Source: Nitrososphaerota archaeon
GTDB taxonomy: Archaea; Thermoproteota; Nitrososphaeria; Nitrososphaerales; Nitrosopumilaceae
Length of the DNA stretch: 35,047 nt
Direction: 5' to 3'
Assembly (NCBI GenBank): GCA_029782475.1
Contig: JARPSM010000078.1
Coordinates: forward strand, 1 to 35,047
Positions 1-14,658 of the stretch are shown in pieces; positions within the stretch are counted from its first letter, which is position 1, and every line of letters begins with the position of its first letter. The position numbers were made by a program, and so were the translations under genes. A model generated the notes under the pieces. The model did no database searches. It was not told the origin of the DNA and worked only from the letters and a program-made list of their open reading frames with translations.

Positions 1-175
1 TTTTCTGGACTTTGATATATTCCTCTAAGACACTATGGCAATTCCTACAAATTAGAATTATCTTTTTAATTTGTTTATCATGGTGTTTGGTTAAAGGCAA
101 AAATTTTTTACAACATGGACATTCGCCCAGCATACCTCCCCACGATTCTGTATTATAAGAGACATTTAAAGCCAT
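1..175 (-). CDS. Partial HNH-like/zinc-ribbon small protein (3' end outside window)
   Basis: The reading frame is open from an ATG at 175 down to the left edge of the window, giving 58 residues with no stop, so the C-terminus is missing. The visible protein starts MALNVSYNTESWGGMLG. It has a CPCC cluster, then KHHD, then LICRNCHSVLEEY. Two cysteine pairs flanking an HH and ending in CRNCH is the usual layout of an HNH endonuclease fold (Zn-bound Cys pairs plus catalytic His). An internal ATG at 133 preceded by GGGGAGGT is an alternative start, but the upstream residues look like protein. It lies downstream of the helicase gene on the same strand, 128 bases away, so it may belong to the same defence locus. 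It could equally be a plain zinc ribbon, because the diagnostic C-terminal part is cut off. Confidence 0.55.
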   Translation of the reverse strand, partial: MALNVSYNTESWGGMLGECPCCKKFLPLTKHHDKQIKKIILICRNCHSVLEEYIKVQK

Positions 176-303
176 TAATGAAGATTCAATTTGAATCTTT
201 ATCAATCTTGTGCAAGTTGCATAAAGAAATAGATTAACTCATACAACTATGAATAGTCAACACATGCTAAAGAAATACTGCGCACAACATATTCAATTTA
301 ATA

Positions 304-3300
304 TCATTTATCTGATGTTGTGATGAGCTCATTTCTATCCAGTTTTTCCTTGATTGTTTTCCAATTTTCAATATGGTATCTTGTAGTAGTCTCTTCTACA
401 GATTTGATGACATCTTTTAGTGTTTCATATGGATCCTGAATTGGTGTGATCTTTTCCTGTATGGATTTACTTGTATCTTTAACGTACTCTACAACATATA
501 ACCAATAATCTTTTCCGATACGACGTGCAGTTTCCCATTCATGACTTGTAAGTTTTGGAATTCCTGTGGTCTGAAATGATTTGACTTCAATGCATTTGTC
601 ATAAGATTCAATATCAAAACCTGTATCCCGTTCTGAAACATCTCTAATCATTGACTTTTGTTTGTCTGTATCTGCTAGATCCTGCTCATATCTCATTACA
701 ATTTCCATTCCTGCCAACTCTACATTTCTTCTTTCATTTGCATCAGTTTCGGGAATCACTATAGCAATTGCAATAGGTTCCGTACTTGTAACAGAGTTAA
801 AATCATGCTCTATCGTATCTTTTCGTTTTTCCATTTCTCGTTTCAAGCCGCCTATCTTGTTTTTCTCTCTTGTAATTAATTTTGAATAGTGTGGCGATGT
901 ATTTTTCTTTATCTCATATGAGTCGATATTTTCATTGCATTGATCGATTTTTACAATCGCATGTCTGTCAACAGCATCCTTTGTCTTCTTTTTGATCTTA
1001 TTTAATTTCTCAAAATTCTTTTCGTGGAAACCCTTCTTGATTTTCTCTAGCTCATTTTCAATCCTTTCTTTTGAATTAATGACAAATTGTGTATTTGGGC
1101 TTGTTTTACCTTCATCATATGACCACAAGCTTCTAGGTTCAATTTCAAAGATTTTACCATCCTCATTATGAAATATTGAAACGATCTTACAATCTCGTTC
1201 TCTGCCTTTTCCGTCAATGGTAGATATTTTGTAAACACAAATCAATCCACTTTTAGTAGGATGGGACAAGACGGTAACAGGTCTGGATTCAGATGTATGG
1301 TTGAGGATTTTTTGAATTTGCTTGTTCCCTAAAGCCAAATAATTATAGTTCTTGGATTGAGCTATTTTTCCATCAAATGTACCCTGTAAAATACCTCCTA
1401 TTTTTGCTGCCAGATGTGATGGTGGAATAATTTTTACCAATTGTAATTTTTTGTTTTGCTCCTCAAATTTTCCCTCATTTGATCCAGACCAAACTTCCAA
1501 AAATCGCTTCACTTCTCCCGAATCAACTGCATCTCTCTTAATTTTGGAGTAATCTTCCAGTACTGTATGATCTAATTTGTGTCCTTCTAAGAGCTGTTTT
1601 GTTTTGTTTAGGATGTCTGTTTTCTTTTCATCAATCTTGTCTAGTTCTATCATAATTCTTGTTTCCCAATGTTCTTTTGGTATGCGTAATAATTCTTCAT
1701 ACATTTTGGCAATAGTATCAGAACTGATTAATCTGCCAAGTATGTCAAAGATAGAATTCCCCATAGCTTCTTGTATATGTTTAATCTTATCAAATAATTT
1801 ATTTAGAATATAACCATCAATTGAATTTTCCTTATCAATTATGAGATTATAATAATGAACGGTTCTAGTTTGACCAATTCTGTGAATTCGTCCCATTCTC
1901 TGTTCTAATCTGTTTGGATTCCAAGGAATATCATAGTTAAATTCAACATTACAAAATTGCATGTCTATTCCTTCACCTGCTGCATCCGTACATACAAGTA
2001 TTTCAAATCCCTCATCCTTTGAAAATTCTATCAATTCTTCTTTTCTTTCTTGTATTTGCATGGTACCGTCAATCTTTCCCGTGGAATAATGTTTATCTAA
2101 TCTTGTAATTAGATAATCCAATGTATCTCGATATTCTGTAAATAAAAGAATTTTTGCCTTGGAATCTACAGTTTTTATTTTTTTAAATGATTCTAAAAGA
2201 AGCTCAAATTTTGAATCTTTATCTTTTAATTCTTTGATCTTTGTAATTATCATTTCAAGATCTTGTTTTTCTTTACTGGTGTCACCTTTACCTATGGTTA
2301 TACCTTCAGCTTCGTCTATGAGATCTTCATAGTCTGCATCATTGTCTTCCTCTGCATTATCTAGTTTATTTTGGGCATTTTGAATTGTATTATCTGAAAC
2401 TGTTCCCAGTTTGTTCATTCTTCGTGCCAGTGATATCTCTAATGCCTTTAGTGATGATGCAGCTCTCTTTTTTAGTATGATTGATAGAAAACGAACTGCG
2501 TTGGTTTCTTTTGGGTTTTCTGCTTGTTCGTATCTGTCTCTAATGTAATTGTCAATTGATTCATTAATCTCACGCTCTTGATTGGTTAATTCAATATCTA
2601 CAGTATTGCTATAACGTTCAGGAAATACTTGTTCTCCTTTCATATTTATGACATTTTCTTTGATATGTCTTTTCCAGAGATATGTAGAGGATGCAATATC
2701 GGGAACAAATGGATCCAGCAATTTCATTCGTGCCATAAAATCCTCATCTCTGCCATCGTGAGGTGTTGCAGTGAGAAATATCATATAATCTGATTTTTCA
2801 CTTAGAACTGTGCCTAATTGATATCTGTCAGTGTTTATCTTAAATTTATGAGCTTCATCTACTACTACTAAATCAATTTTATCTTTGATTAATTGATAGT
2901 TTCCCTCACGCTTGAGAAAATCCATTGATGTAATATAGTCATAATGATCTTTTGAGAAAGGATCACTGTCTTGTTTGATATACTCTGAATCAAGAATTGT
3001 TGTTTTTGTATCAAATCTGCCCTCTAACTCATCTTGCCATTTTAGGACAAGTGATTTGGGAACAACGTATAGCGTTTTATCTGCTAGTCCTCTGGCCTTT
3101 AACTCAGTTGCAATCAATGCTGCAATGATGGTCTTTCCCAATCCCACTTCGTCTGCAATCATTATGCGAGGATTTTCAAGACCCCAGCTTACCTCGTCTA
3201 TCTGATGTGGAAAAATTGTAATTTTTGTAGATGATGCCAGGACATATGGATTAAATTTATACTCATTTAGTAAACGATTTGCATCCACAGCAAGAATAAA

Positions 3301-3495
3301 GTCTATTACATCATCAAACTGTCCCTGAATAATTTTGTTTATTTGTTCATCTGACACATCTGTTAGATCATCAAGTGGAAACCACTGTTTTTTTGAATCA
3401 ATACTAATTTCAGCAAAATTATCTTTTACAGATAATACTATTCCTTGTTTATTGTCATATCCCTTGATTAGAACATTGTTTCCGGATTTAATCAT
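304..3495 (-). CDS. SNF2-family helicase with C-terminal DUF3883/PD-(D/E)XK-like domain (antiviral cassette)
   Basis: 1063-residue superfamily 2 helicase/translocase. Visible motifs are Walker A DEVGLGKT (residues 115-122), DEAH (213-216), LTATPHDG (241-248), and motifs V/VI around 504-543 (TDAAGEGIDMQ, then RMGRIHRIGQTR). This is the SNF2/HepA-type arrangement used for ATP-driven tracking on double-stranded DNA. The middle (about 380-430 and 560-950) is charged and partly coiled. Near the C-terminus, GFD (959-961), followed nine residues later by EVK (970-972), then SHEWETARRIGKDYWLYVV, matches the DUF3883 domain. D961, E970 and K972 are placed like a PD-(D/E)XK nuclease triad. I infer that this subunit is the DNA-translocating and possibly cleaving part of a restriction-modification-like system. 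Its ATG lies one base after the methylase stop, so the two are probably co-translated. No key helicase residue appears to be missing. Confidence 0.85.
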   Translation of the reverse strand: MIKSGNNVLIKGYDNKQGIVLSVKDNFAEISIDSKKQWFPLDDLTDVSDEQINKIIQGQFDDVIDFILAVDANRLLNEYKFNPYVLASSTKITIFPHQIDEVSWGLENPRIMIADEVGLGKTIIAALIATELKARGLADKTLYVVPKSLVLKWQDELEGRFDTKTTILDSEYIKQDSDPFSKDHYDYITSMDFLKREGNYQLIKDKIDLVVVDEAHKFKINTDRYQLGTVLSEKSDYMIFLTATPHDGRDEDFMARMKLLDPFVPDIASSTYLWKRHIKENVINMKGEQVFPERYSNTVDIELTNQEREINESIDNYIRDRYEQAENPKETNAVRFLSIILKKRAASSLKALEISLARRMNKLGTVSDNTIQNAQNKLDNAEEDNDADYEDLIDEAEGITIGKGDTSKEKQDLEMIITKIKELKDKDSKFELLLESFKKIKTVDSKAKILLFTEYRDTLDYLITRLDKHYSTGKIDGTMQIQERKEELIEFSKDEGFEILVCTDAAGEGIDMQFCNVEFNYDIPWNPNRLEQRMGRIHRIGQTRTVHYYNLIIDKENSIDGYILNKLFDKIKHIQEAMGNSIFDILGRLISSDTIAKMYEELLRIPKEHWETRIMIELDKIDEKKTDILNKTKQLLEGHKLDHTVLEDYSKIKRDAVDSGEVKRFLEVWSGSNEGKFEEQNKKLQLVKIIPPSHLAAKIGGILQGTFDGKIAQSKNYNYLALGNKQIQKILNHTSESRPVTVLSHPTKSGLICVYKISTIDGKGRERDCKIVSIFHNEDGKIFEIEPRSLWSYDEGKTSPNTQFVINSKERIENELEKIKKGFHEKNFEKLNKIKKKTKDAVDRHAIVKIDQCNENIDSYEIKKNTSPHYSKLITREKNKIGGLKREMEKRKDTIEHDFNSVTSTEPIAIAIVIPETDANERRNVELAGMEIVMRYEQDLADTDKQKSMIRDVSERDTGFDIESYDKCIEVKSFQTTGIPKLTSHEWETARRIGKDYWLYVVEYVKDTSKSIQEKITPIQDPYETLKDVIKSVEETTTRYHIENWKTIKEKLDRNELITTSDK

Positions 3496-3496
3496 T

Positions 3497-6058
<2,562 letters not shown>

Positions 6059-6080
6059 GATATTTAGAAAATGAATCTCT

Positions 6081-6090
6081 TTATAATTAT
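6081..6090 (-). promoter_or_regulatory. TATA-like box ahead of the methylase gene
   Basis: TTATAATTAT is centred about 27 bases before the GTG start at 6058. That is the archaeal TATA-to-start spacing, with transcription beginning at or next to the start codon. It would let the methylase and helicase be expressed apart from the ATPase gene. No experimental support. Confidence 0.45.
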
Positions 6091-6094
6091 AACA

Positions 6095-6448
6095 CTAGTT
6101 TTTGTAGAATGCTCTCCATGCCTTGAGGGAATTATTATTTGTAAGAAATTTGTTTGCCCAAAAGTGAATTTCCATGTTTCCAAGTGATTTCACCTGTTCA
6201 ATATACTGCATTGCCTCAAATTTATCCTTAGCTGCCTTGAGTACATGTAATCCTACAAATTTTCTAACAACAACATCATTCCATTCATCTGTCTCAAAGG
6301 AGAGATATTTTGTTGCAAGTTTTGCTCTCCAACCAGTAACAGAAGAAAAGTTAATTGTTTGCTCTCCAAACACATCATCTACTGTAATCTTGAACATAAC
6401 TGATTTTCCACTTTTGCTTACCGTTAAACAGTGATTAAAATTTCTCAA
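6095..6448 (-). CDS. 117-residue unknown subunit of the methylase/ATPase cassette
   Basis: Short protein encoded between the ATPase and the methylase. Its TTG start overlaps the ATPase stop (TTGA at 6448-6445), a coupling that supports this start over the internal ATG at residue 18. The first 40 residues look like beta strands (VMFKITVDDVFGEQTINFS). The rest is mostly helical, with tryptophans at spaced positions and the C-terminal stretch EIHFWANKF ... LKAWRAFYKN. There is no catalytic motif, signal peptide or membrane segment. In related bacterial cassettes the slot between the DUF499 and DUF1156 genes is often filled by a DUF3780 protein. The WA...W spacing at the C-terminus is loosely reminiscent, but this protein is shorter and I cannot show homology. 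Its role as an adaptor within the complex is inference from position only. Confidence 0.75.
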   Translation of the reverse strand: MRNFNHCLTVSKSGKSVMFKITVDDVFGEQTINFSSVTGWRAKLATKYLSFETDEWNDVVVRKFVGLHVLKAAKDKFEAMQYIEQVKSLGNMEIHFWANKFLTNNNSLKAWRAFYKN

Positions 6449-9135
6449 ACCTTTTTCACATTTATGTTGTTTTTATTAAGAATTTCTTCCATGTTTACTG
6501 TTGAATTTATAATCAGATATCCAGTCCCTGAGGGATTTTTTTCCTTAATCGAATTAAGAACACCCTTGAGCATCATATAATCATTCAATTTACTTTCAAT
6601 AAAGATCACTGTATCGCTGACATTGACCTTTGCGTTAAATTGTTTTTGTGAATTTTTCCAAATATCCTCTAAATTAACCAAGGCAAGTCTGAATACACAG
6701 TCAGAGATCTCTGTAAAACTCTCAAAATCAATTTGATATTTAAACGAGTTGACATTTTCAAATGTTTGTTGGGTTACTATAGATGTATCACTAGTATGTG
6801 ATTTGTCTGGCAGGTCTGGGATGTGAATTTTATCTTTGTTTACGATGTAACCATCCCAATTAAAACATTCTTTGTTAATTTCTGCAATATACTTTTCATC
6901 ACTCATCTTAATTTCATTGCAAAATCCAAATTTTCCTGCACCTGTACCATCTTTGATAGCATCTGCAATACTTTCTGAACGAAGAAGAAATGGTTGAGAT
7001 TTGTCTTCCTTGAAATTTTTGTATATTGAACTTATCTTTTGAGTGGTTTCTGGAATTTTAATGCCATCCACACTAATATCTTCTACTAGCTTTCCTTTTT
7101 TTATTAATAATTCTATCATTGATTCAGTTATTGTATTCTTTTTTGATTCCAAAAATCTAATTTCATCCAAACGAGGATGAACACCATTGGGATATCCAAT
7201 TTTACAGTAAACTGTCATGCAACTATTTTCTAACTGAGATTTTGCATTGGATTCTTTACTGCTTACTTGTTTTAGAAATGATTCATTGGCACAGACTGTT
7301 TCATCTTTTCTTGTTTTTTTAACTGCTGCTAGATATTTGGCCTGATCCTCAAGAATATATGCGGAATCTTGATCAACGTAAACAAAAACAATTGTATTTT
7401 TATTAGTTCTAATTCCTCCATTGCTAGTTCGATCAATGATTTGTGTCATGTAATCAATTGCAATAGCATCTGTAGATAATTTTTTAGCATAGTCTATTAT
7501 GAAAATTTTGAGATTCACAGTATCATCAAGTTCATGCTCATCCCAAACAACTGGAGAAAAACCCTTTGAGGGCAGGAGATTTTTTAATGAATTTCCAATT
7601 TCAACTCGTATCTCATTACTTGTCACATCCTTCTTATGTTCAAATATTATCGCATTAATATTTGGAGCCTGTACAAAATAAAATTCTTGATTATCCTTGT
7701 CTTGAATATACCAAAAATTCTCTGAAATATCTTCTTCTAAAGATTTGTCAACTAATGCAGGTTCTATTCCAGGCCTTCCTACGGACAGTTTGATTTGATT
7801 GCGTCTAATTCCAGATTTTTTATTTTGTCCATGCAACGAGAATACATAAATTGTTCTGGCTATGGATTCTACAATTTTTGTAGATTTGGATTCATCTAAT
7901 TTTTGGGCATGATTTATACAATCTGTATCAATTACTGTGCGCAAATTCATATCTATTTTTGCAGTTAATTCATCTGCAATCTCGTGATTGGTTAATTGTA
8001 TGTCTCCAAGACTAATGATCTTGCAATCTGGTTGTTCTGCAGTAATTTGCCTAATTACACGTCCCAACAAGCGAAGCATGCCTCTAGTTTGATTAAATTT
8101 TGAGATTGTTGATACACGATCGTATAATGTATCAATTAAAAATGGGTGAAAAGGATATGATCTTTTCAGTTTTTCCTCAAAATCAGGTTCTAATACAATT
8201 CCATTGTTTTGGTAATATTGAAAATATTCTTTGACTATTATATCTCGTTGAGTGTCATCAATTTTTTTGACCAGTCGTGCTCTTACTACATCATAAATCT
8301 GATTTCTTTCCACAGGAGTCACAATCTGAGTTTGTCTGGAAATTCCCTCTCTTAATTTGTCATCAATCTCATCTACCACATAATCCTGTATCGATTTTGA
8401 TCCTGAAATAATTTTTGATGTATACTTTTCATACAATGTTTGTTTATCAGTTAATGTCAGAATTAGACATGATTTATCTGATGCAGAAATTGCACTGATT
8501 AAATCCATCAAAAATACAATAGTCAAATCTGCCATTGTTCGATTTCCTTGTTTTTCTCCATCTGCCTTTAGGAGATAGTGTGGCAGTTCATCAATTAACA
8601 ACAGAGTTGGTTGTTCAAACAATGATTTTATTAATGAAATATCATTGATTGGTTTTTTCTCAACATCAAATTCCTTAAATTTGTCATACTGTCCTAACTG
8701 ATCTGCGATTTCTCCCCATAGAGTATTCTTGGAGATTTTTCTGCAATCAAGTGCAAGCATTTTAGCTTTAGGTATTTTCTCAATTCCATATTCTGAGGAC
8801 AAGTTGATTTTTTTAATGAATTCTAGACCCTTCTCTGGATTGTTTATGATATGATGCAATAATAGAATGGAGTGTGTTTTTCCTCCTCCAAAACCTGTAT
8901 TAATTACAGTTACAGGCTGTCCTCTTCCAGATTCTAATCGTATCAAAGAATCTTTTACTAGATATTTCATCTGATTTGTTGGAAATGTGTTCTCAAAGAA
9001 TAGTTCTGGATCTTGATATACAGATCCTGCTGTTTTGTCTAGAAACTCATGTAATTCAACTGCAAATTTTGCTCTGTTAAAATCAGATGATATTATTTCA
9101 TCACTAAAAGTACACGTTTCCCAGACATTTTTCAT
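6445..9135 (-). CDS. DUF499-type AAA+/P-loop ATPase of antiviral cassette
   Basis: 896-residue P-loop ATPase resembling COG1483/DUF499. Walker A is GFGGGKTHS (81-89). Walker B is LLLIDELPHYLL (178-189), with D182 and E183 as the Mg/water-polarising pair. A sensor-like segment, CLILTLTDKQTLYEKY, follows. The C-terminal third (about 560-896) is mixed alpha/beta with no motif I recognise. The family is known from restriction-like defence loci, where it travels with a DUF1156 methylase and a helicase. A direct biochemical role is not settled, so a motor or loader role is inference. It is the first gene of the minus-strand operon. A TATA-like box lies 28 bases before its ATG and the next gene overlaps its stop. 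The protein is complete, with no frame breaks. Confidence 0.85.
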   Translation of the reverse strand: MKNVWETCTFSDEIISSDFNRAKFAVELHEFLDKTAGSVYQDPELFFENTFPTNQMKYLVKDSLIRLESGRGQPVTVINTGFGGGKTHSILLLHHIINNPEKGLEFIKKINLSSEYGIEKIPKAKMLALDCRKISKNTLWGEIADQLGQYDKFKEFDVEKKPINDISLIKSLFEQPTLLLIDELPHYLLKADGEKQGNRTMADLTIVFLMDLISAISASDKSCLILTLTDKQTLYEKYTSKIISGSKSIQDYVVDEIDDKLREGISRQTQIVTPVERNQIYDVVRARLVKKIDDTQRDIIVKEYFQYYQNNGIVLEPDFEEKLKRSYPFHPFLIDTLYDRVSTISKFNQTRGMLRLLGRVIRQITAEQPDCKIISLGDIQLTNHEIADELTAKIDMNLRTVIDTDCINHAQKLDESKSTKIVESIARTIYVFSLHGQNKKSGIRRNQIKLSVGRPGIEPALVDKSLEEDISENFWYIQDKDNQEFYFVQAPNINAIIFEHKKDVTSNEIRVEIGNSLKNLLPSKGFSPVVWDEHELDDTVNLKIFIIDYAKKLSTDAIAIDYMTQIIDRTSNGGIRTNKNTIVFVYVDQDSAYILEDQAKYLAAVKKTRKDETVCANESFLKQVSSKESNAKSQLENSCMTVYCKIGYPNGVHPRLDEIRFLESKKNTITESMIELLIKKGKLVEDISVDGIKIPETTQKISSIYKNFKEDKSQPFLLRSESIADAIKDGTGAGKFGFCNEIKMSDEKYIAEINKECFNWDGYIVNKDKIHIPDLPDKSHTSDTSIVTQQTFENVNSFKYQIDFESFTEISDCVFRLALVNLEDIWKNSQKQFNAKVNVSDTVIFIESKLNDYMMLKGVLNSIKEKNPSGTGYLIINSTVNMEEILNKNNINVKKV

Positions 9136-9158
9136 TGTTAGATGATTACCTACCTAGT

Positions 9159-9166
9159 CTTAAAAT
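9159..9166 (-). promoter_or_regulatory. TATA-like box for the antiviral operon
   Basis: ATTTTAAG on the minus strand is centred about 28 bases before the ATG at 9135, consistent with a leaderless operon transcript. A second AT-rich candidate (TTATTATAACG, near 9176-9186) would give a leader of about 20 bases. The choice between them is open. Confidence 0.4.
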
Positions 9167-9442
9167 GAATTACTTCGTTATAATAACATATTTTATCAGA
9201 TATTAACTAAAAACGATATTCTAGCTATTTCAAACATTTTAGAGAATAAACAGTGCTCTAAATAAGAATCAAATAAAAAAATTGTCAATAAATTGGAATC
9301 TTATATCAATTGATAGAGTAATTTTATTATCAAATCACCTCAAAAAATAATTGAGGGATTATCGAATAGTCAAAATATACCAATTTATCTCAACGTTTTA
9401 AGCTTAGTTGAATTTGATTATTGTACAAGCTATTGTTTAATG

Positions 9443-9507
9443 CGTTGGATAAGTCTACAATTACGCATTGGTATAACGATTCAGCTAGTTTAAACCCACA
9501 TCCAACG
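9443..9507. repeat. 8-bp inverted repeat CGTTGGAT / ATCCAACG
   Basis: CGTTGGAT at 9443-9450 and its exact reverse complement ATCCAACG at 9500-9507 bracket a 49-base segment that holds one ATTACGCATT element. The left arm overlaps another element of that family (TAATGCGTT). Confidence 0.5.
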
Positions 9508-9598
9508 AGTTATAATGCGTTAGTAGAGTGTTGAGGGATATTTTTCAATTCTGTCAAGCTTGATGGATTCAACGTTATATAACGCATAAATTCACTTC

Positions 9599-9636
9599 AT
9601 AATCCGAAAAGGGATTAAGAAAGTTATACGGATTAT
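9599..9636. repeat. 8-bp inverted repeat ATAATCCG / CGGATTAT
   Basis: ATAATCCG at 9599-9606 pairs exactly with CGGATTAT at 9629-9636. A nested GGATTA at 9612-9617 could pair with TAATCC at 9600-9605 instead, so two alternative stems are possible. Confidence 0.5.
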
Positions 9637-9743
9637 ACAATTATTCCAAGTCAAAAAATTTCCAACCTTTTTTAATCAAGTATGAATCAACCCTAGTTAA
9701 TTGAATCAAATTATGCCAGATGAACCAGTGAATTATAGTATAT

Positions 9744-9771
9744 GATGAATAGCTTTGGATGAATAGCTTTG
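9744..9771. repeat. Tandem 14-mer, two copies
   Basis: GATGAATAGCTTTG is present twice head to tail (9744-9757 and 9758-9771), followed by a partial GAT. It looks like a recent slippage duplication in noncoding DNA. Confidence 0.8.
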
Positions 9772-9826
9772 GATAACCTTTTTTGTTACGCACAAAAAAA
9801 GCTAGAATTACGCATAACTTTTGATT

Positions 9827-9850
9827 ATATCGTTATGCCATGCGTAACAT
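9827..9850. repeat. 24-base direct repeat, copy 1
   Basis: The segment begins ATATCGTTATGC and ends CATGCGTAACAT. An identical 24-base copy lies at 9893-9916, 66 bases away. Within it GTTATGC and GCGTAAC form a 7-bp inverted repeat around CAT (one G-T wobble). The sequence between copies also shares an AAAAAAAGAGCTAG-like stretch with the region just before copy 1 (AAAAAAAGCTAG), so the repeat unit may once have been longer. Confidence 0.85.
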
Positions 9851-9892
9851 AGAGCTACCATTCAAAAAAAGAGCTAGATCTATTTGTAGCAA

Positions 9893-9916
9893 ATATCGTT
9901 ATGCCATGCGTAACAT
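9893..9916. repeat. 24-base direct repeat, copy 2
   Basis: Exact second copy of the 9827-9850 repeat, with the same internal inverted repeat. The period of 66 bases is not a CRISPR-like array, as there are only two copies and no cas genes nearby. Confidence 0.85.
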
Positions 9917-9920
9917 TATT

Positions 9921-9942
9921 CTTAATCCTAAATAGGATTAAG
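9921..9942. repeat. Perfect 10-bp inverted repeat with 2-base centre
   Basis: CTTAATCCTA at 9921-9930 is followed by AA and then TAGGATTAAG, its exact reverse complement. It lies 4 bases after the second 24-base repeat. It could be an operator, a cruciform, or a hairpin. It is not followed by a T-run, so a terminator is unlikely. Confidence 0.8.
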
Positions 9943-10175
9943 AGGATTATTAGATTATAACAGTCTCAAAAATAAGGTCTAACCTTTTTTTGAATCATCA
10001 TTTTGTAACAATTAGCAGCAAATAGCATGATAACTGTACGTTATCAACCGACATTTAACGCCTGATTTGATCAATTGCAAGTTAACAGAACCGTTTTTGT
10101 CTTAGCCTTCAATGGTTCTACAAAATATCCTAGATATAGTAGATATGGCCAAAAAATAAAAATTGTCCACAAAAA

Positions 10176-10183
10176 TTTAAAAG
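10176..10183 (+). promoter_or_regulatory. TATA-like box for the zinc-finger membrane protein gene
   Basis: TTTAAAAG is centred about 26 bases before the ATG at 10206. This fits a leaderless transcript. There is no purine-rich ribosome-binding site before the ATG, in agreement. Confidence 0.45.
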
Positions 10184-10205
10184 CAACAATACGAACAATT
10201 TTCTC

Positions 10206-10763
10206 ATGGGACTAAGAGGCCGTATAATAGCCTTGATTTGTGTGACTTTATTCCTAAATATGCCATTGTATAGTTCAGTTCCTTATGGTGAAGGATTGGT
10301 TGAATACGCGGATCGGGCTTATTCAACTAGTTGGTATAATGCAACTACCCATATACCTGAATGTGTGTTGTCAGGTAACTCTTGCTTTGAAGGATTTGCA
10401 GACGGTATGGCTGTATTCGTTATCTTCTCGGCCAGTTTCTGGATTCCAAGCATTATAATTATTTTCATAATCCGTGGAGAGATAAAATATCGTATTTGTA
10501 AGATATGTAACAAGAAAATGAAAGGTAGTAGTAGTATTATATCCCATATGAAACGTGATCATCCTTTATGTTGTCCCATTTGTATTACTCAATTCAACGA
10601 TTCTATTTCACGTACTTGTCATGATCTAATTCAACATTCTGGCACAAAAAATCAATTAAACTGCCCAATATGTGGACATCTGTCATGGTCTGGAGGTGGT
10701 GGACTTGCATCAGCTCACCTTTATAATCATATTGTTACTAGACATCCAAAAATTTTTGGGTAA
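10206..10763 (+). CDS. Membrane-anchored protein with three C2H2-like zinc fingers
   Basis: 185 residues. The N-terminus (6-22) is a hydrophobic signal or anchor. A second hydrophobic segment at 67-89 (MAVFVIFSASFWIPSIIIIF) is followed by RGEIKYR, so the C-terminal half is probably cytoplasmic by the positive-inside rule. That half carries three Zn-binding units: C98/C101/H114/H119, C123/C126/H139/H144 and C153/C156/H175/H180. The first two have ordinary C2H2 finger spacing; the third has a longer glycine-rich loop. The loop between the two membrane segments has two cysteines (C53, C60) that could form a disulfide. The gene sits next to the repeat-rich region and reads away from it. I do not know a named family with this layout. 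A membrane-tethered DNA- or RNA-binding sensor is a reasonable inference. Confidence 0.75.
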   Translation: MGLRGRIIALICVTLFLNMPLYSSVPYGEGLVEYADRAYSTSWYNATTHIPECVLSGNSCFEGFADGMAVFVIFSASFWIPSIIIIFIIRGEIKYRICKICNKKMKGSSSIISHMKRDHPLCCPICITQFNDSISRTCHDLIQHSGTKNQLNCPICGHLSWSGGGGLASAHLYNHIVTRHPKIFG

Positions 10764-10859
10764 TATAGTAAGCACAAGTTTGTGAGTTATTTTCAAGATA
10801 ATCTCATCAGTCATAATTGCCTAGGTAAAATTTTTCAATCTCTAGTTTTTTGATGATTT

Positions 10860-10964
10860 TTAATTCGTGAACTTTATCTTTTGGCTATAAATTATGATAA
10901 TTGCTCCAATTACTGTAATAACCACTAGTGCAATAATCCACAAAGTAATAAAATTAATTTCCAC
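10860..10964 (-). CDS. Small single-pass membrane peptide (34 residues)
   Basis: A GTG-started frame encodes VEINFITLWIIALVV, continues through about 23 uninterrupted hydrophobic residues, and ends YSQKIKFTN. An acidic/polar start, one membrane helix and a basic tail make a sensible small membrane protein, and the rest of the gap is noncoding. There is no ATG upstream before an in-frame stop. It lies just after the recombinase gene on the same strand (51 bases). It could be a chance frame, so confidence is moderate to low. Confidence 0.4.
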   Translation of the reverse strand: MEINFITLWIIALVVITVIGAIIIIYSQKIKFTN

Positions 10965-11014
10965 AATATACGGGAAAATTTGAAATGTTAAACATTAAAC
11001 ACAGTTTAGATTAA

Positions 11015-11971
11015 TCATTTGAAATTAAGGTATAATGAGGATTCAACCTTATCATATTGTCGCCTTAATGATTCAGGGGAATAATCAGTATAGTGTTTTG
11101 ATATAATTTGTTGATTAATTCGGCCACAAAAAGCGTTAATGTATTTGTCCTGAATTTTTACATCCGTACATTTTTCAGTAAATGCAGTTCTTAATAGATG
11201 AGGATTAATCTTAACCCCTGATTCTAATGAGATTCGTTTAAACTCTTCCTGGATTAACTTGTAGGAAATCTCAAAGAGTATAGAGTCATTATCAAGATTA
11301 TATCTGTCAATATGTTCGGTTAAAAATCTAGCCGTTTGTTCAGTAAAGAAACTAATCCATGATTCCTTAATGTTGGATTCGTGAATTTCAGTGGCATTAA
11401 TCATATTTGTTTCAAAGTCAATATTAGAGACTTTAAGGGCTAAAATTTCACTTATTCTCAATCCTGAATTATACATTAAGAGAAATATTAACCACGTTGG
11501 ATAATTTAGAGAAACGCAAAAATTCGTTAATTCCTGAACATTAGGAATTTTCTTAATTTTTGCCTTTTCTTTTTTGAATTCAAACTCATTAATCCAATTT
11601 CCTAAATTTAGATAATCTCTAAGATATTTCCTTAATGCTTTTACCTGATTTGACTTCCAAGAATTCTTGTCATTTGAATCTAAATAATTTTTGACAGTAT
11701 CTGGATCTATGATCCCTTTTGAGAATGTTAAGAATCCACGAATAACGGATTTATGATTATTAATTGTGGTTTGAATTAATTTCTTTTGAATCGCGTATTT
11801 TTCATACTCATTAATGCTATTTTCAATATCTGAAATTTCAAGAAATTTATCAGGTAAAATGTTGAGTGATTTTTTGATTAAATTGATATCATCCTGCAAA
11901 TTATCTATTTTTTGATTTTGATTTTTCACTGTATCTCTAATTGAATAGAGTATATTTTCTATATTAGACAT
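11015..11971 (-). CDS. Tyrosine recombinase/integrase (318 residues)
   Basis: Phage-integrase-type site-specific recombinase. The catalytic domain shows the first Arg in NSGLRISEILAL (about 169-180), the HLLR box (about 258-261) and the nucleophilic tyrosine in KHYTDYSPESLRRQY near 297-300. The third-position His/Trp box is poorly conserved (FCGRINQQIISKHY). A SAM-like N-terminal core-binding domain precedes it (about 55-135). The first 40 residues form a predicted coiled coil (NQKIDNLQDDINLIKK). The ATG overlaps the end of the upstream HNH gene by 8 bases, so the two are one transcript. It acts on DNA by strand exchange, integrating or excising an element or inverting a segment. Its target is unknown. 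Confidence 0.85.
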   Translation of the reverse strand: MSNIENILYSIRDTVKNQNQKIDNLQDDINLIKKSLNILPDKFLEISDIENSINEYEKYAIQKKLIQTTINNHKSVIRGFLTFSKGIIDPDTVKNYLDSNDKNSWKSNQVKALRKYLRDYLNLGNWINEFEFKKEKAKIKKIPNVQELTNFCVSLNYPTWLIFLLMYNSGLRISEILALKVSNIDFETNMINATEIHESNIKESWISFFTEQTARFLTEHIDRYNLDNDSILFEISYKLIQEEFKRISLESGVKINPHLLRTAFTEKCTDVKIQDKYINAFCGRINQQIISKHYTDYSPESLRRQYDKVESSLYLNFK

Positions 11972-12587
11972 TTTGAATTAATGGATTCTTTTTTATGATG
12001 TATTTTTTACCCTCGATTTTAGTTATTTCATAACTTCCTCTTGAGCTTGCTAACATAGCTATATGTTTTCTAATGGTAGTTTGTGATCCATGTCCTACTT
12101 CCTCTTGGCATAATAGAGCAATTGAATCCAAAGTATCCTGATATTGTAATTTGTCAATTTTTGATAATTCAGATTCTAAATAATTTTTTGTTATGTGAAA
12201 AAATCTAGTATTTGATTCTATTTCTGGATGTTGAAAATCTTCATTATATCTCTCGATTTTTTGAGGTTTGATTTTCTCTCTCTCACTCACTAAAACCCCA
12301 GTTCGTTCATTTTCTTTTAATTGGTCTTTTGCCATTATCTGCCAGTCAGAAAAATTCTTTTTTCGTTGGTTGCATATTTTATGACATAATACTATATTTT
12401 CAATTCTGTTATCGTATTCTTTATTATTTAGATGGTCATATTCCATGAAATAAGGATTTTTGTGTCCATTATGCTCATGTACATTCTCTCTAAATGCTTC
12501 TTTACAGTAAAAACATAATTCACCATGCACTCTTTTTAATATGGGTATCCATTTTCTTTTTTGCTTTGTAGTTATTCTATTAGTCAT
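11964..12587 (-). CDS. HNH endonuclease with C-terminal helical/winged-helix-like domain
   Basis: 207 residues. The N-terminal third is an HNH nuclease domain: C25/C28, the DH of MEYDHLNN (D51, H52), the Asn-rich segment EYDNRIENIVLC, and C68/C72 as the second Zn pair. The middle is polar. The C-terminal 60 residues (DSIALLCQEEVGHGSQTTIRKHIAML, then EITKIEGKKYIIKK) read like a winged helix with a beta hairpin. The gene overlaps the downstream tyrosine recombinase by 8 bases and follows a small Cys-containing gene by 42 bases. It probably nicks or cuts DNA. Coupling to a recombinase suggests a mobile-element function, but a role in defence or regulation is possible. Confidence 0.8.
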   Translation of the reverse strand: MTNRITTKQKRKWIPILKRVHGELCFYCKEAFRENVHEHNGHKNPYFMEYDHLNNKEYDNRIENIVLCHKICNQRKKNFSDWQIMAKDQLKENERTGVLVSEREKIKPQKIERYNEDFQHPEIESNTRFFHITKNYLESELSKIDKLQYQDTLDSIALLCQEEVGHGSQTTIRKHIAMLASSRGSYEITKIEGKKYIIKKNPLIQNV

Positions 12588-12629
12588 GGTATTTTTTTCC
12601 TATGAGAGAGAAAATTTTATTATCAAAAT

Positions 12630-12773
12630 TTAACATGATCTAACCTCTTGATTTTTTCTAGTTATTTCGTATAAACAAAACTGGAGTTCTTTGTCAGTAT
12701 GGATTTTTAGCAATTTATCACAATTACCACAAATTTTATCTCTATTTTTCTGGATTATTTTATTTTGAATCAT
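12630..12773 (-). CDS. Small Cys-containing protein (47 residues) upstream of the HNH gene
   Basis: An ATG-started frame encodes a basic protein with CGNC at residues 15-18 and further cysteines at 33 and 47, flanked by lysine-rich helices. This is enough for one zinc knuckle. It lies 42 bases ahead of the HNH nuclease on the same strand and fills an otherwise empty gap, which supports it being real. The first residues, MIQNKIIQKNRDK, are typical of small DNA- or RNA-binding proteins. No family is recognised. Confidence 0.5.
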   Translation of the reverse strand: MIQNKIIQKNRDKICGNCDKLLKIHTDKELQFCLYEITRKNQEVRSC

Positions 12774-12838
12774 TTTGTTTCTTCACTTATAATACTCAAA
12801 GCTACCCTTTTTACCCAACTCTACCATTTTCTAACTAA

Positions 12839-13537
12839 ATGAAAGATGAATTAGCCTTGTTGGATAAGAAAATAGTCGACTTGATTTTATCACGTTATAA
12901 GCTCCTTAGACAAAATGGTAGACAAAATATCCAAGAGACTAAAAGAATATCCAAGTCCAAGCGTGACGTTATATCTAAAATGAAAAGTGTATTGTCTGCA
13001 TATGATAACATCGGGGAAATTATGAAAGTAGGAATGATTACACCAGAAAAAATCTCTGAGCCTCGATACAATGTTAAAGATAATCTTGAATATATTAGAG
13101 AAATACATTCTAAACTAGATAAAAAAATTATAATTAATACGTTAGAGTTTAATTTAATTCAAAGAAAAGATGATCTAGAATATTTTAAGAACATACAAAG
13201 AGAAATAACATTTGGAGTTTTCGATGAAAAGTCTTTGAATAAATTATTGGATTCCATCTTTATGTTCCATCCAAAAAAATCAATTAATGTCATAGGGGAT
13301 CAAGACATAGTTAACAACGAAAATGAACTAACATCTGAATACTATCAAGAAATACATAAAGCAAAATATCACGAATTGGCTTATTTGCTGGTCAAACGTG
13401 GCATGGATGAAATTATTAAAAATCTTGATTCTAAAGAAGATAAATTAATCATTGAAAATTTTTTGTATACTGTGAACATAGTAAAAAGATTGAGCTATAG
13501 AACAGACATTAAGACATCGCCACAAACAGAAGATTAA
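12839..13537 (+). CDS. Unknown helical protein (232 residues) converging on the second integrase
   Basis: A lysine- and isoleucine-rich, almost wholly helical protein. The first 50 residues (KDELALLDKKIVDLILSRY, then RISKSKRDVISKMKSVL) look like a coiled coil with a basic face. The C-terminal part, HELAYLLVKRGMDEIIKNL, is again amphipathic. No catalytic motif, signal or membrane segment is seen. The stop codon overlaps the stop of the facing tyrosine recombinase by 3 bases, so the two genes end back to back. The start is the first ATG. No TATA box stands out clearly. It could be an accessory factor of the integrated element. I do not recognise the family. Confidence 0.7.
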   Translation: MKDELALLDKKIVDLILSRYKLLRQNGRQNIQETKRISKSKRDVISKMKSVLSAYDNIGEIMKVGMITPEKISEPRYNVKDNLEYIREIHSKLDKKIIINTLEFNLIQRKDDLEYFKNIQREITFGVFDEKSLNKLLDSIFMFHPKKSINVIGDQDIVNNENELTSEYYQEIHKAKYHELAYLLVKRGMDEIIKNLDSKEDKLIIENFLYTVNIVKRLSYRTDIKTSPQTED

Positions 13538-14658
13538 TTTTTACATTTAATTTCTCTAAGATTTAATTCTTCAATAATATCTAGGACATCAGAATATCTT
13601 TTTTCTAATTTTCCATAATCTTTTTGTTGTCTATCATTTTGATATTTCAAAGCCTCTATTATTTCATCTTGTTTTTTGTCTTTTTCATCATCATAAATTA
13701 ATAAATCTGATTCATATTTCATATAGTAAGATAATTTTTCATCATCAGTTAATTTATCATACATGGCTAAATCTTTAGAATTTCCTTGTCCTGCAAAATA
13801 TTTAGCTAAAATTGGGTCATGACGATTAAATCTAGTAATAAAATATGCTCTAAGACTATGTGAGGATATCATGCTTTTACCAGTTTCAGATTTTTTATAT
13901 AGATTGCATTTTTTCAAGTATCTAACTATAGCTTGCTGATAAGGCTCTCCAATATTGATGGCATTAGGTTTTCCGGTGGAAAATATCAAATCTTCATCAT
14001 CTTTAGTTTTCAGCAATTCTATGATCTTGGATGTTATTTCTCTACTTAGAAAAATAGTCCTTGCTTTTTTCCTCTTTGTTATGCTAGATGGTATTTTTAC
14101 CATAATTCTTTTTTTAGATGTATCAAAATGTTTTTTTCGTAACTGCAACATCTCCCCCCGTCTCATGCCTCCTGATAACTGAGCCAATATTCTCAATCGA
14201 TTAAGATGACTAGCATGACTTAGAATTTGCTTAATTTCATATTTTGTAAGTGCATATCCTTCCTTAGTTTCAGTAATTGGAAAATCTAGATTATCCTTAA
14301 CATCCTCAGAATATAGTTCAATTTTCTGATATTTTAGATATTTTTTAACACATGAAAAATACATACGAATCATATTAGTTGGGTGTTTCCGTTCAACGTT
14401 CCAATTTATCCAATCTTGTAGAGAATCAAATAATTGATCTTGTGTGGCTATTCTATATTCTTCAATCATTTGTTTTTCTGAAACTTTGTATTTTTCAAGG
14501 CAAAATCTATCAAAATTCTTTATTGCATTATTGATATTTTTTTGATAGTTGAGAGATTTGGATTTTATTTTTTGATCAAAACTAACTCTGTTCCTAGTTG
14601 TGGATAAAATTGTCGACATCATAGAATTATCGACTAATTTATTACTTAAACCTATCAT
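13534..14658 (-). CDS. Tyrosine recombinase/integrase (374 residues)
   Basis: Integrase family protein with an intact catalytic domain: SGGMRRGEMLQL with the first Arg (about 163-174), a beta-hairpin lysine near ITKRKKARTIFLS, the HSLRAYFITRF box (about 268-278), GQGNSKDLAMYDKL holding the tyrosine nucleophile (near 299), and a long charged coiled-coil tail (about 325-374). The position after HxxR that is usually His/Trp reads GQG. Residues 30-130 form the core-binding domain. The ATG (14658) lies inside the spacer of a 7-bp inverted repeat and 43 bases from the divergent Lrp-like gene, so the gene sits at a likely chromosome/element junction. It differs enough from the 318-residue recombinase nearby that the two are not a recent duplicate. 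Confidence 0.87.
   Translation of the reverse strand: MIGLSNKLVDNSMMSTILSTTRNRVSFDQKIKSKSLNYQKNINNAIKNFDRFCLEKYKVSEKQMIEEYRIATQDQLFDSLQDWINWNVERKHPTNMIRMYFSCVKKYLKYQKIELYSEDVKDNLDFPITETKEGYALTKYEIKQILSHASHLNRLRILAQLSGGMRRGEMLQLRKKHFDTSKKRIMVKIPSSITKRKKARTIFLSREITSKIIELLKTKDDEDLIFSTGKPNAINIGEPYQQAIVRYLKKCNLYKKSETGKSMISSHSLRAYFITRFNRHDPILAKYFAGQGNSKDLAMYDKLTDDEKLSYYMKYESDLLIYDDEKDKKQDEIIEALKYQNDRQQKDYGKLEKRYSDVLDIIEELNLREIKCKN

What the first reader, a model, noticed from the sequence alone, without database searches (positions are those of the whole stretch)
304..9135. Four-gene R-M-like antiviral cassette in a thaumarchaeal genome
The operon ATPase (DUF499-like), 117-residue protein, Zn-ribbon methylase (DUF1156-like), SNF2 helicase with DUF3883 is a defence-type arrangement known mainly as a predicted system. 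It lacks the DUF1998 protein and PLD nuclease that define DISARM and has no BREX-type PglX/PglZ. The helicase subunit itself may be the nuclease. Its mode of action is, as far as I know, not established.
Basis: partly seen in the sequence, partly recalled or inferred. Interest (0 to 1): 0.7.

Follow-up and report, generated by a model that had tools for sequence, protein, structure and literature searches.

The report
Archaeal four-gene restriction-like antiviral cassette
An archaeon carries, next to mobile-element genes, a four-gene DNA-marking and DNA-cutting set of a kind already predicted to defend against viruses, but with a small fourth protein that the published description of its nearest subtype leaves out and that proves to be a widespread, conserved partner of the ATPase gene.

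Summary
In detail: four minus-strand genes (ATPase 6445-9135, 117-aa protein 6095-6448, methylase 3497-6058, SNF2 helicase with DUF3883/NOV_C nuclease 304-3495) with Pfam families as named, intact motifs (K121, D464, E970/K972 all correct) and junctions of -4, +36 and +1 nt. The system is not unclassified: PADLOC calls it Hma and a 2026 paper calls the kind BREX-related (BR) RM-like systems. What is new concerns the 117-aa protein. It has no library hit, but profile comparison ties it to Pfam DUF7680, a family that I find almost only beside DUF499: 30 of 33 systems with the methylase downstream have it, against 2 of 49 with the methylase upstream. DUF7680 in turn resembles DUF3780, the marker of Type-2 BR systems, which occupies the same slot. 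In a DUF499 tree the window and 20 relatives (archaea plus one bacterium) form their own clade: Type-1-like nuclease plus Type-2-like small subunit, a combination not described in the paper that defines the types. Most likely function: methylation-dependent restriction, with the small protein as adaptor or sensor of the ATPase. Known kind, new variant. Function untested.

The parts
6445..9135 (-). DUF499 AAA+ ATPase (896 aa; HmaC / BR ATPase), first gene; Walker A GGGKT aa 83-87, Walker B LLIDE aa 179-183; no N-terminal HEPN domain found
   Evidence: Pfam DUF499 5.4e-37; PADLOC HmaC 1.3e-67; NCBIfam DUF499_antiphage 6.9e-68, below its cut-off; motifs
6095..6448 (-). 117-aa DUF7680-like subunit; TTG start overlaps the ATPase stop by 4 nt
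   Evidence: no direct library hit; hhalign of five close homologues vs canonical DUF7680 score 31.9, P 1.9e-4, controls at most 17.3; wider group score 63.5, P 7.8e-10; conserved slot beside DUF499; AF2 model pLDDT 74
3497..6058 (-). DUF1156 adenine-type DNA methyltransferase (853 aa; HmaB): DPFAGTG, DPPY (D464), zinc-ribbon-like CxxC...CxxC insert between them
   Evidence: Pfam DUF1156 7.2e-7, N6_N4_Mtase 3e-7; PADLOC HmaB 2.9e-59; NCBIfam DUF1156_antiphage 9.6e-62, below its cut-off; motifs
304..3495 (-). SNF2 helicase-nuclease (1063 aa; HmaA): small N-terminal barrel-like segment, SNF2 motor, C-terminal PD-(D/E)XK (NOV_C/DUF3883)
   Evidence: Pfam SNF2 1.4e-17, Helicase_C 8.9e-25, NOV_C 2.6e-11; PADLOC BrxH 5.9e-100, HmaA 1.3e-96
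469..720 (-). NOV_C nuclease domain (aa 926-1009) with D961, E970, K972
   Evidence: Pfam; motif positions and other NOV_C helicases for comparison
9136..10205 (.). 1.07-kb intergenic region upstream of the operon, with a 24-nt exact direct repeat (9827, 9893) and a 32-nt imperfect repeat (9596, 9919); presumed promoter region
   Evidence: function not tested
11015..14658 (-). context: two tyrosine recombinases (11015-11971, 13534-14658) beside the cassette; the syntenic flank in seven relatives holds other genes here
   Evidence: Pfam Phage_integrase 2.4e-13 and 1.4e-12; synteny

Best explanation
A methylation-dependent, ATP-driven restriction module of the DUF499-centred kind (Hma / BREX-related). 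The DUF1156 enzyme methylates adenines at a specific site in host DNA. The DUF499 ATPase, with the 117-aa DUF7680-like protein as its dedicated partner, assembles on DNA and licenses restriction where the mark is missing. The SNF2 helicase moves along that DNA and its C-terminal PD-(D/E)XK domain (D961, E970, K972) cuts it. Shown here: family assignments, intact motifs, operon structure, conserved position and co-inheritance of the small gene with DUF499. Inferred: antiviral role, adenine as target, self/non-self logic, the partner role of the small protein.
For: Family hits and motifs. The same ATPase - small gene - methylase - helicase order in archaea, proteobacteria and actinobacteria, with DUF7680 or DUF3780 in the small-gene slot. 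Small gene present in 30 of 33 systems with the methylase downstream of DUF499, 2 of 49 otherwise. DUF499 tree: window clade C 96, Type-1-like clade A 100, Type-2-like clade B 94; the helicase tree separates the same two nuclease types. Mobile setting and patchy distribution typical of defence: 13 of 300 genomes of the class have a DUF499 match, two recombinases lie next to it, and relatives have other genes at the site. BR systems are proposed as RM-like in PMC12839542.
Against: No virus challenge of this or any archaeal member is known to me. HmaB was called an m5C enzyme in PMC8565338 (DPPY argues against that here). Abortive infection rather than restriction is not excluded. The small protein's function is unsupported beyond its position and co-inheritance.
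Confidence: 0.65

Rival explanations
1. Plain Type-1 BR / Hma system of three working genes; the 117-aa ORF is an unrelated passenger.
For: Type-1 is described as ATPase, methylase and helicase only; the 117-aa protein hits no library family.
Against: Homologues sit beside DUF499 in 12 of 13 further archaeal loci and across clades B and C; profile link to DUF7680; the window's DUF499 lies outside the three-gene clade.
Confidence: 0.1
2. The cassette defends by abortive infection: the helicase-nuclease, once triggered, attacks host as well as viral DNA, and the methylase or the 117-aa protein restrains it, antitoxin-like.
For: PMC12839542 notes HEPN-bearing DUF499 variants proposed to act as suicide effectors; small regulators are common in defence operons (general knowledge).
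Against: No HEPN domain found in this ATPase; the methylase favours restriction; no toxin signature found.
Confidence: 0.2
3. It is a divergent DISARM or BREX system.
For: The helicase scores well with DrmD (3.7e-98) and BrxH (5.9e-100) profiles.
Against: DrmD score 330 bits against a cut-off of 610; no DUF1998, PLD, PglX or PglZ in the cassette, no PglZ in the genome.
Confidence: 0.03

Closest known systems
Hma (helicase-methylase-ATPase) candidate system, PADLOC (PMC8565338)
   Same: HmaA, HmaB and HmaC profiles all match (1.3e-96, 2.9e-59, 1.3e-67)
   Different: Hma is defined with three genes; here a fourth sits between ATPase and methylase
Type-1 BREX-related (BR) system (PMC12839542)
   Same: DUF499 + DUF1156 methylase + SNF2 helicase with C-terminal PD-(D/E)XK nuclease
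   Different: Type-1 is described as three genes; the three-gene members found here mostly run helicase-methylase-ATPase and their DUF499 forms a separate clade
Type-2 BR system (DUF3780, PLD/HKD helicase)
   Same: same gene order with a small protein in the same slot; that protein (DUF3780) is a probable distant relative of DUF7680 (score 38.3, controls at most 20.5)
   Different: nuclease is NOV_C at the C-terminus, not PLD at the N-terminus; the 117-aa protein does not match DUF3780 directly
Pfam DUF7680 (PF24728)
   Same: same slot, similar C-terminal sequence pattern (acidic residue, aromatic-W, then A-x-[RK] near the end), similar order of predicted secondary structure
   Different: the window protein is shorter and below detection by the Pfam model

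Membership tests
Hma / DUF499-centred BR systems | DUF499 ATPase, DUF1156 methylase and SNF2 helicase in one locus | tested here: met
Type-1 BR | helicase with C-terminal PD-(D/E)XK nuclease | tested here: met
   NOV_C 2.6e-11, D961/E970/K972 present; enzymatic activity not tested
Type-1 BR | only three core genes | tested here: not met
   fourth gene 6095-6448, conserved
Type-1 BR | N-terminal TUDOR domain on the helicase | tested here: inconclusive
   subthreshold SH3-type hit aa 6-44 (0.023); barrel-like N-terminus shared with L026, L170, L173; no structure
Type-2 BR | N-terminal HKD/PLD nuclease on the helicase | tested here: not met
   no PLD match; DUF7680-type helicases of other phyla do show weak PLD matches
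Type-2 BR | standalone DUF3780 protein | tested here: inconclusive
   PF12635 not found in G000 but that search rang in no control either; window group vs DUF3780 score 17.4, within controls; link only through DUF7680
Type-3 BR | PglZ in the locus | tested here: not met
   PglZ not found in the genome, controls positive
DUF7680 (PF24728) | match over Pfam's cut-off | tested here: not met
   no hit for the window protein
DUF7680 (PF24728) | homology by profile-profile comparison | tested here: met
   scores 63.5, 53.6 and 31.9 for three groupings, controls at most 17.3
DISARM | DUF1998 protein (DrmB), helicase DrmA and PLD nuclease DrmC beside the methylase | tested here: not met
   no such gene in the cassette; the contig ends 303 nt beyond the helicase, so a gene further out is not excluded
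BREX | PglZ together with BrxC and PglX | tested here: not met
   PglZ not found in the genome; BrxC profile only 0.032 on the ATPase

The most novel reading that the evidence does not exclude
The 117-aa protein, DUF7680 and DUF3780 are one superfamily: a core second subunit of DUF499 systems, lost or never gained only in the Type-1-like clade. The window belongs to an undescribed fourth lineage (clade C), mostly in archaea of its own phylum, that joins the PD-(D/E)XK helicase of Type-1 with the small subunit of Type-2.
Probability: 0.55. Interest if true: 0.6.

Novelty: new variant of a known kind. Interest (0 to 1): 0.47.

Why it matters
The 2026 survey that defines BR systems says Type-1 has three genes, DUF3780 is unique to Type-2, and no definitive DUF3780 homologues were found. 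If the small proteins are one superfamily, that classification needs a fourth type, and the proposal that DUF3780 merely stands in for a missing TUDOR domain weakens, since the window's closest group seems to have both. It also offers a small, tractable protein with which to test how these widespread systems (3592 taxa in that survey) recognise foreign DNA.

Tried and rejected
The 117-aa protein matches designed TIM barrels in the PDB sequence search (1.4e-7); treated as a chance match to designed repeats. Foldseek of its model against PDB: nothing under E 0.3. Model of a canonical DUF7680 (L050) against the viral library and a PDB second look: no convincing match, best Z 6.6 over 68 residues, within the range the tool calls common. 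A single-sequence scan of genome contigs with the ATPase found nothing; the alignment scan gave 80 loci, chosen by similarity to the query and so not a random sample. A PF12635 search over 14 genomes rang nowhere, controls included, so it says nothing. Direct comparison of the 117-aa group with DUF3780 failed. The Halomonas experimental paper is not held. DISARM and BREX readings were rejected as above; a housekeeping role was rejected because the cassette is patchy and lies at a variable site.

Full report
Observation. The window is the whole of contig C154 of a 1.92-Mb, 98.5%-complete genome. Four co-directional minus-strand genes occupy 304-9135: DUF499 ATPase, 117-aa protein, DUF1156 methylase, SNF2 helicase with NOV_C/DUF3883. 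The ATPase stop and the TTG start of the 117-aa gene overlap by 4 nt; the other gaps are 36 and 1 nt.

Identity. PADLOC profiles place the three large proteins as HmaA (1.3e-96), HmaB (2.9e-59) and HmaC (1.3e-67). NCBIfam anti-phage models match the DUF499 and DUF1156 proteins strongly but below their cut-offs. PMC8565338 named Hma as a candidate system; PMC12839542 (2026) treats the same systems as three BREX-related types: Type-1 with a C-terminal PD-(D/E)XK helicase and three genes, Type-2 with an N-terminal HKD helicase and DUF3780, Type-3 with PglZ. By its nuclease the window would be Type-1; by its fourth gene it would not.

The small gene. No library matches the 117-aa protein. Close homologues (51-55%) lie between DUF499 and the methylase in two relatives, and a 20% homologue is in the same slot in a third. 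A 127-aa protein in the same slot of G038 gave a subthreshold hit to DUF7680 (0.19), and the DUF7680 hit in G067 lies directly after its DUF499. On a Leptolyngbya plasmid the gene after DUF499 is a clear DUF7680 (4.1e-47), and plasmids of Natrinema, Aminobacter and Rhodococcus have the order DUF499 - DUF7680 - DUF1156 - SNF2, with the small gene annotated 'hypothetical protein'. No paper in the library mentions DUF7680.

Tests of the link. An iterated HMM search over 5235 ORFs from a cyanobacterial seed gathered 40 members, nearly all of them beside a DUF499 gene, the window protein included; its E-value there follows inclusion and is not independent. A model of canonical DUF7680 alone does not find the window protein (E 7.1) but finds its relative in L026 (1e-4). 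Profile-profile scores are the better test: the window group with L116, L026 and L036 against canonical DUF7680, 63.5 (P 7.8e-10); twelve new archaeal members, 53.6 (P 5.8e-8); the window and its four closest homologues only, 31.9 (P 1.9e-4); column shuffles and slices of unrelated families reach at most 17.3 with the window group. Canonical DUF7680 against ten DUF3780 proteins gives 38.3 over 173 columns (P 4.6e-5) against controls of at most 20.5, but the window group against DUF3780 directly is no better than controls (17.4). So window-DUF7680 is well supported, DUF7680-DUF3780 fairly, window-DUF3780 only through the middle. AF2 models agree in the order of elements: 117-aa protein, three strands then five helices (pLDDT 74); canonical DUF7680, three strands, helix, short strand, four helices (pLDDT 89). 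PMC12839542 describes DUF3780 as a four-stranded sheet with five helices and no definitive homologues.

Distribution. Among DUF499 loci where the methylase lies downstream on the same strand, 30 of 33 have the small gene; where it lies upstream, 2 of 49. The sample is of relatives of the query, so these are not population frequencies. A search of 398 genomes of the phylum with the small-protein alignment found 19 with a match; of 13 loci fetched, 12 have it beside a DUF499 gene. The thirteenth, L179, lies near a BrxL gene.

Phylogeny (FastTree, local support only, midpoint-rooted). DUF499: the window and 20 others form clade C (96), the NOV_C systems without the small gene form clade A (100), PLD systems with DUF7680 or DUF3780 form clade B (94). 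Helicase: all NOV_C helicases separate from all PLD helicases (100); C is next to A but not one clade there (it was one, at 81, with fewer rows). So C shares the nuclease with A and the small subunit with B. Which state is ancestral is not tested, for want of an outgroup. Long branches and uneven composition were flagged by the program.

Setting. The genes right of the cassette include two tyrosine recombinases. In seven same-genus genomes the block of an AsnC-type gene, two small genes and aconitase is conserved, while the DNA beyond it, where the window has recombinases and cassette, holds other genes; one relative has a fragment similar to the window's integrase at that spot. The left side is the contig end, so the island's extent is unknown. 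A truncated 117-aa gene near a contig start in G078 looks like a remnant.

Mechanism. The most likely scheme is restriction licensed by absence of a methyl mark: the methylase marks self, ATPase plus small protein sense and assemble, the helicase-nuclease cuts. The steps after gene identity are inferred from the families. In clade C the small gene occurs both with a barrel-like helicase N-terminus (window, L026, L170, L173) and without one (L036, L171 and others), which does not fit a simple replacement of TUDOR by the small protein; the barrel itself is only weakly supported (MSSS 0.023).

Verdict. Real, known kind, new variant. The novelty rests on the small subunit and clade C, not on the existence of the cassette.

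Noticed in passing
L034, L171, L172, L174, L177, L180, L181, L182: A subgroup of clade C with order methylase-ATPase-small gene-helicase; most fetched loci have a further gene of about 415-447 aa beside the helicase, and the two tested (L171, L174) are metallo-beta-lactamase fold with an RMMBL-type segment: a candidate extra nuclease.
   Followed up: partly
L179:976-3812 (G341 contig 75): DUF7680 gene (4.4e-9) about 1 kb downstream of a BrxL gene (9.4e-109), with no DUF499 in 12 kb: DUF7680 in a BREX-like setting.
   Followed up: partly
window 1-14600: Probable integration hot spot next to an AsnC-type gene; G558 (L186:10860-11228) keeps a fragment similar to the window's integrase at the same place.
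   Followed up: partly
window 9827-9916: 24-nt exact direct repeat ATATCGTTATGCCATGCGTAACAT, spacing 66 nt, upstream of the operon; possible regulator site.
   Followed up: no
L170:8821-11503: DUF499 gene appears split (776-aa and 194-aa overlapping ORFs), perhaps a frameshift.
   Followed up: no
L046:5574-11601 (Haloplanus plasmid): In this Type-3-like locus the slot between DUF499 and methylase holds a phosphatase-family gene with a weak PglZ match.
   Followed up: no
L047, L131 (cyanobacterial plasmids): Toxin-antitoxin, peptidase or endonuclease genes lie embedded between the small gene, methylase and helicase.
   Followed up: no
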